DNA of 64,000 bases from Pontibacter sp. G13 (lineage in GTDB: Bacteria > Bacteroidota > Bacteroidia > J057): assembly GCF_031851795.1 (NCBI RefSeq), contig NZ_CP134696.1, positions 3,058,501 to 3,122,500 on the forward strand, given 5' to 3'. Shown piece by piece: positions 10,966 through 44,754 of the stretch. The position numbers and the translations under genes were made by a program. The stretch's first letter is position 1; the number at the start of each line of letters is the position of its first letter. Under the pieces are notes generated by a model that saw only the letters and a list, made by a program, of their open reading frames with translations, made no database searches and was not told where the DNA came from.

Positions 10966-12225
10966 ATGTCCATCACCAAGAATCTTCACGATTTCAAGCC
11001 AGAGAGCTTGATGATGTCCCACGGTTACAAGCCATCGCTTTCCGAGGGATCCATCAAATGTCCCATTTTCCAGACCTCCACATTTGTCTTTGACAAGGCT
11101 GAGGATGGGAAGGCATTTTTTGAAGTAGCTTATGGTCTGAGAGAGCCCGCCGAGGATGAATCCCAAGGGCTGATCTACAGTCGCCTCAACAATCCCGACC
11201 TCGAGATTCTGGAGGATCGCCTCACCTTGTGGGATCAAGCTGAAGCTTGTGCGGTGTTTGAAAGTGGAATGTCGGCCATTTCCACGGTATTGATGGAGTT
11301 TCTTCAACCAGGCGATCTGCTGCTCTACAGCAATCCCCTGTATGGTGGCTCCACGCATTTTATCCAAAACTTCCTGCCCAAATATGGCATCCACGTCGTG
11401 GGATTCCGCCCGGGCCAGACCCGTGAGGAGATTGAGCAGATACTTGACGAAACCGGACATCGCGACAAACTCGCCATGATCTACGTCGAGACTCCCGCCA
11501 ATCCCACCAATGACCTCATCGATATTGCCTGCTGTCATGGGATTGCGGCCGATCACACTTCTGAAGATCGCAAAGTGGTTCTCGCCGTGGACAACACGTA
11601 TCTGGGGCCACTGTGGCAACATCCCTTGAAGCTGGGCGCAGATATCGTCATGTACTCCGCCACCAAATACATCGGCGGACATAGCGATGTGATTGCTGGA
11701 GCCGTGCTCGGATCAGCGGAACTGATCACTCGGGTGAAGACGCTTCGTACTTTCCTCGGCAACATGACCGGACCGATGACGGGATGGCTTTTGATGCGAA
11801 GCCTTGAGACCCTCAAAGTACGGATGGAGCGCCAAGCCAAAAATGCTGCCCAGGTCGCGCAATTTCTCAGTACACATCCCAAGGTCGAAAAGATCTACTA
11901 TCTGGGAATGCTCACCAATCCTCACCAGCGCGCCATCTTCGAACGCCAATGTGAATCCGCGGGAGCGATGGTCTCTTTTGATATCAAAGGTGGAGAGGCT
12001 GAGGCATTCAGATTCCTCAATGGTCTCAAATTGGCCAAACTTGCCGTGAGCTTGGGGAGTACCGAGTCTCTCGCCCAACACCCAGCTACGATGACGCATG
12101 CAGGAATGGCACCTGAGGAAAAGGAAATCTTGAGGATTAGCCCGAGCCTTGTACGACTCTCTGTAGGGGTTGAGCATATCGATGACCTCATTTGGGATAT
12201 TTCTCAGGCACTCGAACAGGCTTGA
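10966..12225 (+). CDS. Cys/Met metabolism PLP-dependent enzyme (methionine gamma-lyase / cystathionine gamma-lyase-like)
   Basis: A 419-residue fold-type I PLP enzyme of the Cys/Met metabolism family. The catalytic lysine is Lys234 in YSATKYIGGHSDVIAG; YSRLNNP (Tyr71, Arg73) is the phosphate-binding motif contributed by the neighbouring subunit; GMSAI after the ESG motif and VETPANPTN are also family hallmarks. The C-terminal part has SLGSTESLAQHPATMTHAGM, common to gamma-lyases and gamma-synthases. It carries a short insertion (YGLREPAEDESQ) before the YSR motif. Substrate cannot be fixed from sequence alone: methionine gamma-lyase, homocysteine lyase or cystathionine gamma-synthase are all possible. 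The divergent Lrp regulator favours an inducible catabolic role. Confidence 0.85.
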   Translation: MSITKNLHDFKPESLMMSHGYKPSLSEGSIKCPIFQTSTFVFDKAEDGKAFFEVAYGLREPAEDESQGLIYSRLNNPDLEILEDRLTLWDQAEACAVFESGMSAISTVLMEFLQPGDLLLYSNPLYGGSTHFIQNFLPKYGIHVVGFRPGQTREEIEQILDETGHRDKLAMIYVETPANPTNDLIDIACCHGIAADHTSEDRKVVLAVDNTYLGPLWQHPLKLGADIVMYSATKYIGGHSDVIAGAVLGSAELITRVKTLRTFLGNMTGPMTGWLLMRSLETLKVRMERQAKNAAQVAQFLSTHPKVEKIYYLGMLTNPHQRAIFERQCESAGAMVSFDIKGGEAEAFRFLNGLKLAKLAVSLGSTESLAQHPATMTHAGMAPEEKEILRISPSLVRLSVGVEHIDDLIWDISQALEQA

Positions 12226-12300
12226 TCATCCAGCGTTTGGGAATTAGAGGTTATTGAAGTTTCTTGTAAGCTCATCAGTCAACCTCACAATCTCTAATAC

Positions 12301-12516
12301 ATGGAAAAGAAATCACTCTTCGTTGCATACATGCTTTGGTTGTTCTTGGGCTTCTTCGGAATCCACAAGTTCTACCTCGGCAAAACAGGCTGGGGCCTCG
12401 TCTATATCTTCACTGGTGGGTTGTTCACCATCGGCTGGATCATCGACTTGTTTACCCTCCCCGGTCAGGTGGAAAACTACAACCTCGAGATTGAGGTACA
12501 CCGCCGCAATCATTGA
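12301..12516 (+). CDS. TM2 domain membrane protein
   Basis: A 71-residue protein with the TM2 domain: two membrane helices (about 6-22 and 30-52) joined by the conserved turn GFFGIHKFYLGKTGWG, then GGLFTIGWIIDLFTLP. TM2 proteins are small inner-membrane proteins of unknown activity. The full length of the family is present. It is 75 bases behind the PLP enzyme and has its own terminator. An upstream, larger frame in another phase is spurious. Confidence 0.9.
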   Translation: MEKKSLFVAYMLWLFLGFFGIHKFYLGKTGWGLVYIFTGGLFTIGWIIDLFTLPGQVENYNLEIEVHRRNH

Positions 12517-12561
12517 TACTGACATCGGGATTCATTTCCCAAAAGCTTTTACTAAGCCCAG

Positions 12562-12595
12562 CAGGAATCGTCGTTTAGGCGGTTCCTGTTTTTTT
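12562..12595 (+). terminator. Intrinsic terminator after the TM2 gene
   Basis: Hairpin with arms CAGGAA/TTCCTG extended by CG-rich pairs around TTTAG, followed by seven T residues. Confidence 0.85.
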
Positions 12596-12646
12596 GTTAC
12601 CGAAGTCTTCAGGAAGATTTTTGAGCTAGCTGGGGTAAGTCCAGAT

Positions 12647-12836
12647 GATTGGGGCGTATCTCGGCGCCCAAACAGGAGAGAGGGCTCTAGGCATAAGGGT
12701 CGCCGAGTCGGGCCCTTCCGTGCTCGCTGACGCTCGGTCGAGGATCTGCGGGCGAGAGATCGCAGCCCGCAGATCCTCGACTCCTCCTGGCGGAGGCCAC
12801 TACAGACCCCTTACGCCGCTGCCAAGCCCACCGCAC
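12647..12836 (+). repeat. Dispersed palindromic repeat, copy A1
   Basis: Begins GATTGGGGCGT and ends GCCCACCGCAC. The core GGGCCCTTCCGTGCTCGCTG then CGCTCGGTC is shared with the other copies. It holds a 17-bp perfect hairpin (12737-12753 with 12765-12781) around the loop GAGAGATCGCA. The right part CTCCTCCTGGCGGAGGCCAC matches copy B read on the other strand. It lies back to back with copy A2. Confidence 0.85.
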
Positions 12837-12879
12837 TCTACATGAAGGGAACGAGACTTGGGCAAAGGGAATCCCATGA

Positions 12880-13101
12880 AATGTGCGGATGGCCCGTGGG
12901 GCGTGATGGGCCTGGAGGATTCAGTCGGTGGAGACGGATCTCATGCTCGGAGCAAGCGATGGATCGGCATTGACTCAAGATGTCCGGCTCATCCAAATCT
13001 CCACCGACCGAGCACCGCGAGTCCGGAAGGGCCAGACCCCGTGCCTCCTCTGATCAGCAAGATCCCAGATCCCAAGCACACGGGGACACGCCCAAATGAT
13101 C
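12880..13101 (-). repeat. Dispersed palindromic repeat, copy A2
   Basis: Same element in opposite orientation to A1. On the minus strand it starts GATCATTTGGGCGTGTCCCC and ends GCCCATCACGCCCC, then GGGCCATCCGCACAT. The middle has GGTCTGGCCCTTCCGGACTC and TCGGTCGGTGGAGA, with the pairing arm TCTCCACCGACTGAATCC about 90 bases later. It is longer inside than A1 and B. Confidence 0.85.
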
Positions 13102-13109
13102 TCCCGCAC

Positions 13110-13144
13110 AAAAAAATGCCCCTGCTTAGCAAGACAGCAGAGGC
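13110..13144 (-). terminator. Terminator of the first DUF1501 gene
   Basis: Read on the minus strand: stem TGCCTCTGCT / AGCAGGGGCA (one wobble) and then seven T residues. It lies about 105 bases after the stop at 13251. Confidence 0.75.
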
Positions 13145-13250
13145 ACACAACAAGCGGTAAACACAAAAGTTTAGCAAGCATCAAAAGAGATTCCATCCAA
13201 CAGGGAAAAGTAATTCTTCCTCCAGATGGGAGATAGCAGGTCAGGGCTCG

Positions 13251-15005
13251 CTACTCGGTTACCACTATTTTTTCTGTACAAATCACCCGGGAACTAAATG
13301 CGCTCCCCTTGTTGGCCACAATTTGCAGGACGTAGGTTCCCGCATGGAGGCTACCGATGTCCCAGGAGGTTTGTACCATTCCCGCAAACATTCTCAATTC
13401 TCGTTCCAATACTGTTCGGCCCTGCATATCATACAGCGCCAAATGGGCAGGCTGCATTCTAGACCATTCAAATTGGATGTTGAGCATACCTGAGGTGGGA
13501 TTGGGGCCGATTTCCACCTGAACCTGAGTGGAAGCAGGATGGGAGATCGAGGTAGTCAAAGTAGGCAAATCCGGCGTGGTGTCGCAGGTAGTGTCCGCTA
13601 CATAGTTCACCAAGTTGCCGCTGCCATCATTGTATTGTGAATTGACGAGGTTGAGTTTCTGTCCGGAGAATTCATAGAATCCGGTCTCATCCAGCGTCCC
13701 GTTATTGGCCCCCAACCAATCCTGCATGACAGTGGTGAATACCTGCCGGTAATCATGCTGGTAGGAGGTGAAATTGTTGTTGTTGATTTGATTGAGATTG
13801 GGGTTGGTACCCGAGACTCCGGGATTCACGCCACGCCCAAAGATCATCATAGGCGCTGAGGTTCCGTGGTCCGTTCCCATGGTGCCATTCTCTGCCACCT
13901 GTCTTCCGAATTCCGAAAGCGTAACGGTCATCACACGATCCGCCAAACCCTGCGCCGCGAGATCATCTTGGAAAGCTTTTACCGACTGAGACAAGTGGTA
14001 CAACAAACTACCATGTGCGCCATAGCTGGGTTTTCCGGCCAAAGCCTGATGGGCATGCGTATCGAATCCGCCCATCCGCACAAGGAAAATCTTGGTGCGA
14101 CTGCCTCCACTGATCAGACGAGCCACCGTCTTGAGCTGAGGAGCAAGCCTGTTTTTGTAGTTGAACTGGGTCGGAGTGTGATAGACATCAGGATAGGTCA
14201 CGCTGGGATCATTGGTTCCCGCGGTGAATAGCTGATCGAGTCGCTCTGCATATACATTGGTACTTCGCTCCATTTCCACGAGGTACTGCAACTCTGCTCC
14301 ATAATCCGATGCAGGAAATTGATCCGGCAATGCTCCGCCTACCCCAGACAGCAAGCTCTGGAAGGAAGTAGGATTATTGCTCAAGGTCAATCCCATGGGT
14401 ATGCCCACCTGACGGTGAAACCCCAAGGAAACGATATGGCTTCCAAATTCCAGCCCCGGAGGATCTTCCATGTCGGGGTTGGGATAGACGTCGGGATAGT
14501 TGGGGTAGCGATGATCGAGATATCGTCCAAACCATCCATCGACAGGATTCTCGGGCATATTGATCCCGTCCTTCCCTGAGAGCAGGATATCGGTCCCCTT
14601 GAAATGCGAACCATTGTTGTCTGGATAGGAGACATCCTGCACGATATGGACGAGGCCATCATCGTACATGGATTTCATGGCCATCAGATCTGGATGAAGA
14701 CCGACCTGGTCTTGGTTAGCCATGGTGGAATCCAGTTCGATATATTTTCGAGGGCCAGAATCCTTGATCCCGATCAGGGGTCTCAAGGACTTGTAGGTAT
14801 TGTATTGTTCGAGGGGAATGAGGGTATTGAGGCCGTCATTGCCCCCGTGTAGTTGGATCAAAACCAGAATCCGGTCACTGACCTCTTCACAGGAAAAAGA
14901 GCTAGTGAGTGCGGATTGTCCCATCACTCGGACAGGGATGCCGTTGAAAGCGAGCGGAGCCAATGCGAGGGGCATGACACCCTTGAGGAAATTTCTCCGG
15001 TTCAT
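13251..15005 (-). CDS. DUF1501 protein with type IX secretion C-terminal domain
   Basis: A 584-residue DUF1501 family protein (alkaline-phosphatase-like sulfatase fold is suspected for the family, activity unproven). The N-terminus has a twin-arginine-type signal (MNRRNFLKGVMPLALAPLAF). The DUF1501 body covers about 40-460: VLIQLHGGNDGLNTLIPLEQ, GSHFKGTDILLSGKDG, FLVRMGGFDTHAHQ, TLSEFGRQVAENGTMGTDHG. Residues about 495-584 form a type A type IX secretion sorting domain (GPNPTSGMLNIQF, LALYDMQGRTV, LHAGTYVLQIV). So it is likely exported and attached at the cell surface. A Tat-like leader together with a type IX tail is noteworthy. It sits 35 bases behind the DUF1800 gene, its usual partner. 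Confidence 0.9.
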   Translation of the reverse strand: MNRRNFLKGVMPLALAPLAFNGIPVRVMGQSALTSSFSCEEVSDRILVLIQLHGGNDGLNTLIPLEQYNTYKSLRPLIGIKDSGPRKYIELDSTMANQDQVGLHPDLMAMKSMYDDGLVHIVQDVSYPDNNGSHFKGTDILLSGKDGINMPENPVDGWFGRYLDHRYPNYPDVYPNPDMEDPPGLEFGSHIVSLGFHRQVGIPMGLTLSNNPTSFQSLLSGVGGALPDQFPASDYGAELQYLVEMERSTNVYAERLDQLFTAGTNDPSVTYPDVYHTPTQFNYKNRLAPQLKTVARLISGGSRTKIFLVRMGGFDTHAHQALAGKPSYGAHGSLLYHLSQSVKAFQDDLAAQGLADRVMTVTLSEFGRQVAENGTMGTDHGTSAPMMIFGRGVNPGVSGTNPNLNQINNNNFTSYQHDYRQVFTTVMQDWLGANNGTLDETGFYEFSGQKLNLVNSQYNDGSGNLVNYVADTTCDTTPDLPTLTTSISHPASTQVQVEIGPNPTSGMLNIQFEWSRMQPAHLALYDMQGRTVLERELRMFAGMVQTSWDIGSLHAGTYVLQIVANKGSAFSSRVICTEKIVVTE

Positions 15006-37945: not shown

Positions 37946-37968
37946 GGGTTTGGACATGCATGAATCTC

Positions 37969-38160
37969 GATGTGCGGATGGCCTGCGGGGCGTGATGGGC
38001 CTGAAGTGGCCTCCGTCAGGAGGAGTCTCGAATCTGGAGGTGGCGATCTCTCGCCTCCAGATTCGAGACCGAGCGTCAGCGAGCACGTAAGGGCCAGACC
38101 TCGCGCTTGATTCTCCAGAGAAAGCCTACTGTCAAGCACGCGGGGGCACGCCCAAATCTC
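37969..38160 (-). repeat. Dispersed palindromic repeat, copy B
   Basis: On the minus strand it starts GAGATTTGGGCGTGCCCCCG and ends GCCCATCACGCCCCGCAGGC, then CATCCGCACATC. It holds a 16-bp perfect hairpin (38025-38040 with 38054-38069). The arms differ in sequence from copy A1, but the loop core GAGAGATCG is identical. It fills the gap between infC and the convergent TPR gene. Confidence 0.85.
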
Positions 38161-44443: not shown

Positions 44444-44661
44444 GATTTGGGCGTGCCCCCGCGTGTTCGGCCTTGGGTACCTTTCAGAAATTCGAGTCGC
44501 GGGGTCAGGCCCTTCCGGACTCGCCAGAGGCTCGGTCGGTGAAAACAAATCCCTACCGATCAACATATTAAACCTCATACAATTGACTCCTCCAGATGAA
44601 GTTTGCAACCCACCGACTGAATCCTTCAGGCCCTTCACGCCACACCAGCCAGCCGCACATC
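44444..44661 (+). repeat. Dispersed palindromic repeat, copy C
   Basis: Begins GATTTGGGCGTGCCCCCGCG and ends AGGCCCTTCACGCC, then GCCGCACATC. It has GGGGTCAGGCCCTTCCGGAC and GGCTCGGTCGGTG near the middle, and the pairing CACCGACTGAATCCTTCAGG 70 bases later. It lies between the lipoprotein gene and the hydrolase gene at 44755. Confidence 0.85.
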
Positions 44662-44754
44662 TACCAGAATTTTCCCAAAATTGAAACCAAAAATTGGAAG
44701 TCTCGTCCAGTATTTAGACATTTATCTAAATACCTAACCACATTTCAATTCGTC

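What the first reader, a model, noticed from the sequence alone, without database searches (positions are those of the whole stretch)
12737..12781. Repeat hairpins with different arm sequences but preserved pairing
Copy A1 has a 17-bp perfect stem (TCGAGGATCTGCGGGC plus one more pair) and copy B a 16-bp perfect stem (GTCTCGAATCTGGAGG) at the same place in the element, around the identical loop core GAGAGATCG. The arms differ at most positions yet stay fully paired. Copies A2 and C carry a third pair of arms (TCGGTCGGTGGAGA / TCTCCACCGACTG) split by about 80-90 bases. This is a strong sign of selection on structure (an RNA or cruciform) rather than on sequence.
Basis: partly seen in the sequence, partly recalled or inferred. 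Interest (0 to 1): 0.7.

Follow-up and report, generated by a model that had tools for sequence, protein, structure and literature searches.

The report
Dispersed folded RNA related to Flavo-1
The hairpins are part of a large, many-times-repeated genetic element whose copies change letters but keep the same intricate single-strand fold; it appears to be a divergent, enlarged relative of Flavo-1, a bacterial RNA of unknown function, and looks like a spreading element that settles in the gaps between genes.

Summary
The hairpins are real and belong to a bigger thing. The window holds four copies (12650-12840 -, 12879-13095 +, 37968-38155 +, 44447-44662 -) of an element mostly 160-255 nt long; 183 copies were paired in the 1.31 Mb that I read of this 7.67-Mb genome. 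In 59 aligned copies a fold of eight helices keeps 96.5% of pairs, with 346 compensatory cells against 81 in shuffles. Wobbles on the sense strand are 38 G-U against 2 A-C, so a single strand (RNA or ssDNA) is selected, not a duplex cruciform. A model built from other Bacteroidota copies, many containing Rfam Flavo-1, finds the window elements: a divergent, enlarged branch of that family, below Rfam's threshold. Copies differ in flanks, come and go between congeners, prefer gaps between convergent genes, and pair head-to-head (22 against 1 tail-to-tail and 0 tandem within 1 kb), 3' ends outward, often bracketing repeat-filled gaps. One 32-nt loop changes far faster than the rest. No mobiliser was found; RAYT, IS200, retroelement and MITE tests were negative or weak. 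Best reading: a non-autonomous, structure-selected mobile element; host function of individual copies is not excluded.

The parts
12650..12840 (-). Copy A1, whole element, type I core (sense strand is minus; 5' end at 12840, 3' end at 12650)
   Evidence: cmsearch R1, 181.9 bits; R2 frame model E 0.0013
12737..12781 (-). Hairpin Pb of A1 (the finding): arms 12737-12753 and 12765-12781
   Evidence: fold -36.4/-35.5 kcal/mol on the two strands; helix 5
12722..12737 (-). Hairpin Pc of A1 with invariant tandem G-A (GA/GA in 59 of 59 copies) and a GNNA-type loop
12660..12707 (-). Hairpin P3 of A1: arms 12660-12666 and 12701-12707, hypervariable loop 12667-12700
   Evidence: helix 8; loop variability
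12653..12658 (-). 3' strand of closing helix P1 of A1 (pairs with 12812-12817)
   Evidence: helix 1
12812..12817 (-). 5' strand of closing helix P1 of A1
   Evidence: helix 1
12879..13095 (+). Copy A2, whole element, type II core; head-to-head with A1, 38 nt between the 5' ends
   Evidence: cmsearch R1, 102.9 bits
37968..38155 (+). Copy B, whole element, type I core
   Evidence: cmsearch R1, 197.1 bits; R2 E 7.3e-4
44447..44662 (-). Copy C, whole element, type II core
   Evidence: cmsearch R1, 102.3 bits
12560..12590 (+). Terminator-like hairpin just before the 3' end of A1 (context, not part of the element)
   Evidence: 3 found in 12200-13300, 1.3 expected
13120..13134 (-). Terminator-like hairpin just beyond the 3' end of A2 (context)

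Best explanation
The site is one copy of a dispersed, non-coding element that spreads between intergenic sites of its host and is a divergent, enlarged member of a Bacteroidota-wide superfamily that includes Flavo-1 RNA. Shown: the element has fixed ends (5' GTGCGG, 3' CGCCCAAAT), a frame of closing helix P1, helix P2 (3 bp, mismatch, 2 bp), short helix P2b and hairpin P3 with a hypervariable loop, and an exchangeable core (at least four types); the fold is conserved by compensatory change on one strand only; copies sit at unrelated sites and are gained or lost between congeners. Inferred: the sense strand folds when single (as RNA or as ssDNA) and that fold is what an unidentified trans-acting enzyme recognises when it copies or moves the element, so only copies that fold are multiplied, which keeps pairing while sequence drifts. 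Copies are tolerated mainly past the terminators of convergent genes; later repeats collect behind their 5' ends, so elements end up as outward-pointing bookends of the gap.
For: Covariation on 59 copies; G-U 38 against A-C 2 on the sense strand; 183 paired copies in 1.31 Mb, 167 exact 3' ends in the genome with 0 for the reversed pattern; near-identical copies in different flanks; relatives: R2 model built from 18 class-level copies hits known elements in 25 of 26 cases in 424 kb of own DNA, best E 4.4e-9, and Rfam Flavo-1 lies in 14 of 20 class-level loci at E <= 1, in 6 rows over the gathering score; turnover: at 3 of 3 G084 elements looked up by their flanks in G119 the element is absent, and core alignment resumes 0, 0 and about 16 nt from the element's 3' end; context and head-to-head rule; no own promoter-like flank.
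Against: No mobiliser found; no target duplication; in one congeneric pair 3 elements, and a fourth at a rearrangement, sit in the same gap with the same orientation while flanks have decayed to background, which a purely selfish element does not predict; near-identical copies differ in the P3 loop only (0 of about 155 against 8 of 32), which suggests constraint on single copies or rewriting of the loop. The core of the own-genome element is not found by Rfam Flavo-1.
Confidence: 0.55

Rival explanations
1. Host-retained RNA: the element is copied with its neighbourhood and kept because each copy works as an RNA in UTRs or between convergent genes (protein binding, processing, or blocking read-through).
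For: Same-gap, same-orientation copies in G084 and G119: element identity 0.91, 0.84, 0.75, 0.85 against flank identity 0.42-0.67, unrelated flanks 0.51 on average; elaborate fold with tandem G-A motifs; constraint outside the P3 loop between recent copies; 63 of 146 elements between convergent genes against 72 of 382 gaps.
Against: Copies at unrelated loci reach 0.95 identity, so likeness of orthologues is weak evidence; 3 of 3 sites looked up by flank were empty of the element in G119; in F. psychrophilum Flavo-1 hits were indistinctly sense or antisense to transcripts and many lay outside transcripts (PMC9723704, passages); no orientation rule in tandem gene contexts (39 against 33).
Confidence: 0.27
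2. REP-like DNA mobilised by a RAYT or IS200-type Y1 transposase.
For: High copy number, intergenic, inverted doublets, no target duplication.
Against: Only 2 Y1_Tnp genes in the genome; both are flanked by other repeats; no element within 1.5 kb (pattern scan); R2 hits near relatives of the RAYT in 3 of 46 Bacteroidota loci; no replication-strand bias: +31/-32 and +39/-42 on the two arms, 144 of 147 hits in the listed bins.
Confidence: 0.07
3. Duplex DNA element: cruciform or protein-binding inverted repeat.
For: Perfect palindromic hairpin; the Pb stem folds equally well on both strands.
Against: G-U 38 against A-C 2 on the sense strand; multi-branched fold with short covarying helices such as the 3-bp P2b is not a cruciform.
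Confidence: 0.03
4. Guide-type RNA: a constant scaffold that presents a copy-specific 32-nt loop (and, in types II and III, a longer copy-specific stretch) to a target.
For: P3 loop at background identity (0.53-0.56) in pairs 80-94% alike elsewhere; 8 of 8 differences of one pair in the loop.
Against: Loops and cores match their own flanks no better than shuffled pairings (146 elements); loops match 1.22 Mb of the genome no better than random genomic 32-mers (13.02 against 12.96, capped at 14).
Confidence: 0.05

Closest known systems
Flavo-1 RNA (Rfam RF01705; Weinberg et al. 2010, PMC2864571, table passage seen; PMC9723704 passages seen)
   Same: Class-level copies that hold Flavo-1 share the frame GCGTGA/CACGCC (P1), P2 of 3 bp + mismatch + 2 bp, RAGYGG next to P2b, P3 loop and CACGCCCAAA end; multi-copy in Bacteroidota
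   Different: The window elements score below Rfam's threshold, are 160-255 nt instead of the model's 76 positions, carry extra hairpins Pa, Pb, Pc and a conserved 5' tail; P1 and P3 are not in the Rfam model
REP / REPIN / BIME with RAYT (PMC3733652 and PMC6006769, passages seen)
   Same: Many intergenic copies, inverted doublets, strand that folds
   Different: REPs are 20-40 bp with a GTAG or CGTC end (PMC3733652 abstract in listing); here 160-255 nt, no such foot, no associated RAYT
ERIC, BOX and similar long bacterial repeats (recalled, no call)
   Same: Dispersed, non-coding, foldable, about 100-200 nt
   Different: From memory these lack a covarying multi-branched frame with exchangeable cores; not tested here
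Miniature inverted-repeat transposons (MITEs, recalled)
   Same: Non-autonomous, short, many copies
   Different: No terminal inverted repeats at the two ends and no target duplication

Membership tests
Flavo-1 (RF01705) | Score at or above Rfam's gathering score of 42 bits | tested here: not met
   No hit in the window at gathering, none at E <= 5 in 8 own loci; own genome 0 matches in the class search with strict filters, 15 of 932 candidates scored
Flavo-1 superfamily (frame defined here) | Common frame P1, P2, P2b, P3 and 3' CACGCCC | tested here: met
   R2 built without own sequences hits own elements, 25 of 26 hits on paired elements; reverse search with R1 finds L071 (E 5e-10) and L212 (0.002), weak L211 0.081, of 28 loci
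REP/RAYT | 20-40 bp palindrome with GTAG or CGTC terminus | tested here: not met
   Length mostly 160-255 nt and end GTGCGG / CGCCCAAAT
REP/RAYT | RAYT gene flanked by the repeat | tested here: not met
   exception: L276 and L278 (one MAG) have an R2 hit about 280 nt upstream of the RAYT, and L290 has one about 0.75 kb downstream
IS200/IS605-type ssDNA transposition | Orientation bias to the lagging-strand template | tested here: not met
   skew flips near 3.6 Mb, no bias in 144 of 147 hits
IS200/IS605-type ssDNA transposition | No target duplication, no terminal inverted repeats | tested here: met
   (122 of 146 elements): mean match 1.99 against 2.05 shuffled
MITE of a DDE transposase | Terminal inverted repeats and target duplication | tested here: not met
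   and end sequences
SINE-like retroelement | Reverse transcriptase available in trans | tested here: inconclusive
   One RT in the genome, beside a SLATT_5 protein; best profile group_II_RT_mat 140.9 bits under its cut-off of 300, Drt3a 84.3 under 200
Conserved host RNA | Kept at orthologous sites | tested here: inconclusive
   3 same-gap pairs plus 1 at a rearrangement, 3 sites where absent

The most novel reading that the evidence does not exclude
Extended Flavo-1 is a new kind of mobile RNA-scaffold element: its folded RNA is itself the recognition body for an unknown mobilising enzyme, the copy-specific P3 loop is rewritten at or after each move, and head-to-head pairs act as outward-pointing ends of small mobile islets that can carry genes (as in the G084 block with a small ORF between two elements).
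Probability: 0.12. Interest if true: 0.88.

Novelty: new variant of a known kind. Interest (0 to 1): 0.6.

Why it matters
Flavo-1 is an abundant bacterial RNA motif without a function. This genome supplies hundreds of diverged copies of a larger relative, which show ends, fold, sense strand, core types and context that the 76-position Rfam model does not contain. That makes the question testable: whether Flavo-1 is a host RNA or the visible core of a mobile element. If mobile, it is a widespread structured transposable unit of Bacteroidota with no known enzyme.

Tried and rejected
Replication-strand bias, target duplication, variable parts matching own flanks and P3 loops matching the rest of the genome (one search showed an excess, with residual elements masked and random genomic 32-mers as control, removed it): all negative. 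RAYT/IS200 and RT as mobilisers: not supported. An ORF-bearing long version: the 6 long left-right pairs rested on weak left hits (E 6.7 or worse) and were dropped; none accepted was longer than 358 nt. First gene-context run with crude ORFs replaced by a hexamer gene finder. First P3-loop extraction failed (4 elements) and was redone (146 of 151). Strict DNA pattern in genome contigs found nothing. Rows dropped before counts: L108:1198-1410 left out of A1 because another repeat is inserted in it (59 of 60 type I used); L205 and L207 left out of A2 (18 of 20 class-level rows of L194-L212; also not the three from L071, L072, L079), later found by R2. Elements with left or right E above 0.01 left out of flank tests (151 of 183 kept, 150 or 146 usable). 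Literature: no paper found that links Flavo-1 to mobility or prints these sequences, in searches (open-licence PMC only).

Full report
Observation. The 17-bp stem at 12737-12781 and the 16-bp stem of copy B are there, around the same loop core. The arms of A1 and B differ at 5 of 16 positions, not at most, and all five are compensated. The arms of A2 and C are 63-68 nt apart and belong to another core type.

What it is. The hairpin is one part (Pb) of an element mostly 160-255 nt long. The window holds four copies: A1 12650-12840 (-), A2 12879-13095 (+), B 37968-38155 (+), C 44447-44662 (-). The own genome (G000, 7.67 Mb) holds 167 exact matches to the 3' end pattern and none to its reverse. 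In 1,305,712 bases read in 98 blocks, left and right frame profiles pair into 183 elements; 8 left and 35 right hits stayed alone and 6 long pairs were rejected. The blocks were chosen around known ends, so the number cannot be scaled up. A regex sorted the 183 into core types: III 71, I 60, II 17, IV 14, other 21.

Fold. On 59 of 60 type I copies the structure has 47 pairs in 8 helices: 96.5% standard cells, 32 pairs with changes on both sides, 346 such cells against 81.2 (sd 6.8) in shuffles, none of 500 reaching any measure, and 29-46% paired when slid. The shuffles ignore relatedness, but the slides keep it. The 3-bp helix P2b, which the energy fold did not show cleanly, covaries at all three pairs. 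Hairpin Pa swaps tandem G-A (24 copies) with Watson-Crick pairs; Pc keeps GA/GA in 59 of 59. Outside Pa there are 38 G-U and 2 A-C cells, so the selected form is one strand, RNA or ssDNA; wobble and G-A pairs alone do not separate these two.

Relatives. In 13 family genomes R1 hits the own genome (150, the scoring cap) and G009 (23); 11 have none. A strict frame pattern matches 20 of 395 class genomes. These copies look like GCGTGAGGGATAGAAGCGG..hairpin..AGCGGATAGCCCGACCC..loop..GGGGCACGCCC. Rfam Flavo-1 falls on 14 of 20 such loci at E <= 1, with 6 rows over the gathering score, one of them a second copy in its locus. Flavo-1 itself occurs in 108 of 295 class genomes and in none of the copies of the own genome that were scored. 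A model R2 made from 18 class-level copies, none of them own, gives 26 hits at E <= 1 in 424 kb of own sequence, best 4.4e-9; 25 lie on paired elements, among them A1 (0.0013) and B (7.3e-4). R1 finds L071 (5e-10) and L212 (0.002) in the other direction; most class-level loci are missed by it. I conclude common descent of the frame, with the cores diverged or exchanged.

Literature. Weinberg et al. 2010 (PMC2864571, table passage) list Flavo-1 as a likely RNA, not cis-regulatory, in Bacteroidetes. In F. psychrophilum, Flavo-1 hits were indistinctly sense or antisense to transcripts and many lay outside them (PMC9723704, passages seen). No paper found ties it to mobility.

Context. Of 146 elements with genes on both sides 63 lie between convergent genes and 11 between divergent ones; gaps of 150 nt or more are 72 and 90 of 382. 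Of 179 elements 10 overlap a predicted gene. A1 and A2 lie between two terminator-like hairpins, 3' ends outward. Neighbours under 1 kb apart are 20 head-to-head, 1 tail-to-tail and 0 tandem; a further sample of 42 elements gives 4 head-to-head, 2 of them already counted, and nothing else. Paired elements are of different core types (window: I and II), so they are not the two ends of one duplication. The 5' flanks share other repeats in 189 (same strand) and 201 (opposite strand) pairs, the 3' flanks in 7 and 4. Interiors of head-to-head pairs of 0.4-2.2 kb are often free of genes.

Mobility. Near-identical copies sit in different flanks. In congeners G084 and G119, 3 pairs share the gap and the orientation and a fourth lies at a rearrangement: element identity 0.91, 0.84, 0.75, 0.85, flanks 0.42-0.67, unrelated flanks 0.51. 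The caveat is that unrelated copies reach 0.95. At the 3 G084 elements that I looked up by flank, G119 lacks the element: an 850-bp block with a small ORF between two outward-pointing elements faces 57 bp, and 324 and 303 nt face 96 and 178 nt of other repeats; core alignment resumes 0, 0 and about 16 nt from the element's 3' end. So copies are gained or lost, and some are kept.

Hypervariable loop. The P3 loop of about 32 nt is at background identity (mean 0.546 between random copies) in pairs that are 80-94% alike elsewhere; one pair is identical over the rest and differs at 8 of 32 loop positions. Conserved bits in the loop (TGCCAAG near the start, CCCAGC at the end) remain. Loops do not match own flanks or the sampled genome beyond control.

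Mechanism. Shown: single-strand fold under selection, fixed ends, dispersal, turnover, polarity. Inferred: a trans-acting enzyme that recognises the fold. Not found: that enzyme. Two Y1 transposases have their own repeats, the one RT sits beside a SLATT protein, RAYT relatives carry R2 hits in 3 of 46 loci, there is no strand bias with replication and no target duplication.

Verdict. A real, strong and ordinary-looking hairpin turned out to be part of a large structured element, a divergent and enlarged branch of the Flavo-1 superfamily; most likely a non-autonomous mobile element whose fold is selected, with host function of single copies the main rival.

Noticed in passing
L081:1200-2250 and L019:915-960: The IS200-type TnpA gene (NCBIfam transpos_IS200) is flanked on both sides by repeats that resemble the family that gave an Rfam Acido-Lenti-1 hit at L019; Acido-Lenti-1-like repeats may be REP-type elements of such an enzyme.
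   Followed up: partly
L082:1258-1803 (-): A RAYT-like Y1 protein with its own GC-rich flanking repeats; 59 relatives in genome contigs, mostly Bacteroidota, several with short REP-like palindromes on both sides.
   Followed up: partly
L173:219-2334 (-): Reverse transcriptase beside a SLATT_5 protein; RT scores below the cut-offs of all listed DRT models: possibly an undescribed antiviral RT pair.
   Followed up: no
L108:1198-1410; also elements at G000:C1:1608611 and 3511099: A small palindrome CCCCGGATCAAGTCCGGGG-like repeat is inserted inside P2/P3 of a few copies.
   Followed up: no
5' flanks of elements, e.g. G000:C1:463398, 803152, 1454390: Arrays of other long palindromic repeats (TTCAGAATGACA and GTTCAGGATGACA types) fill the gaps behind the elements.
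   Followed up: no
L276:2111-2222 and L278:2130-2236: In one Chitinophagaceae MAG two RAYT genes each have an R2 element about 280 nt upstream; the only hint of a RAYT link.
   Followed up: no
L226:9567-9665 against L214 and L216: An element lies where synteny between G084 and G119 breaks, as if inverted elements had recombined.
   Followed up: no
type II and III copies, e.g. window 12935-12997: The Pb position holds copy-specific stretches of about 60-100 nt in these types; not traced to any source.
   Followed up: partly
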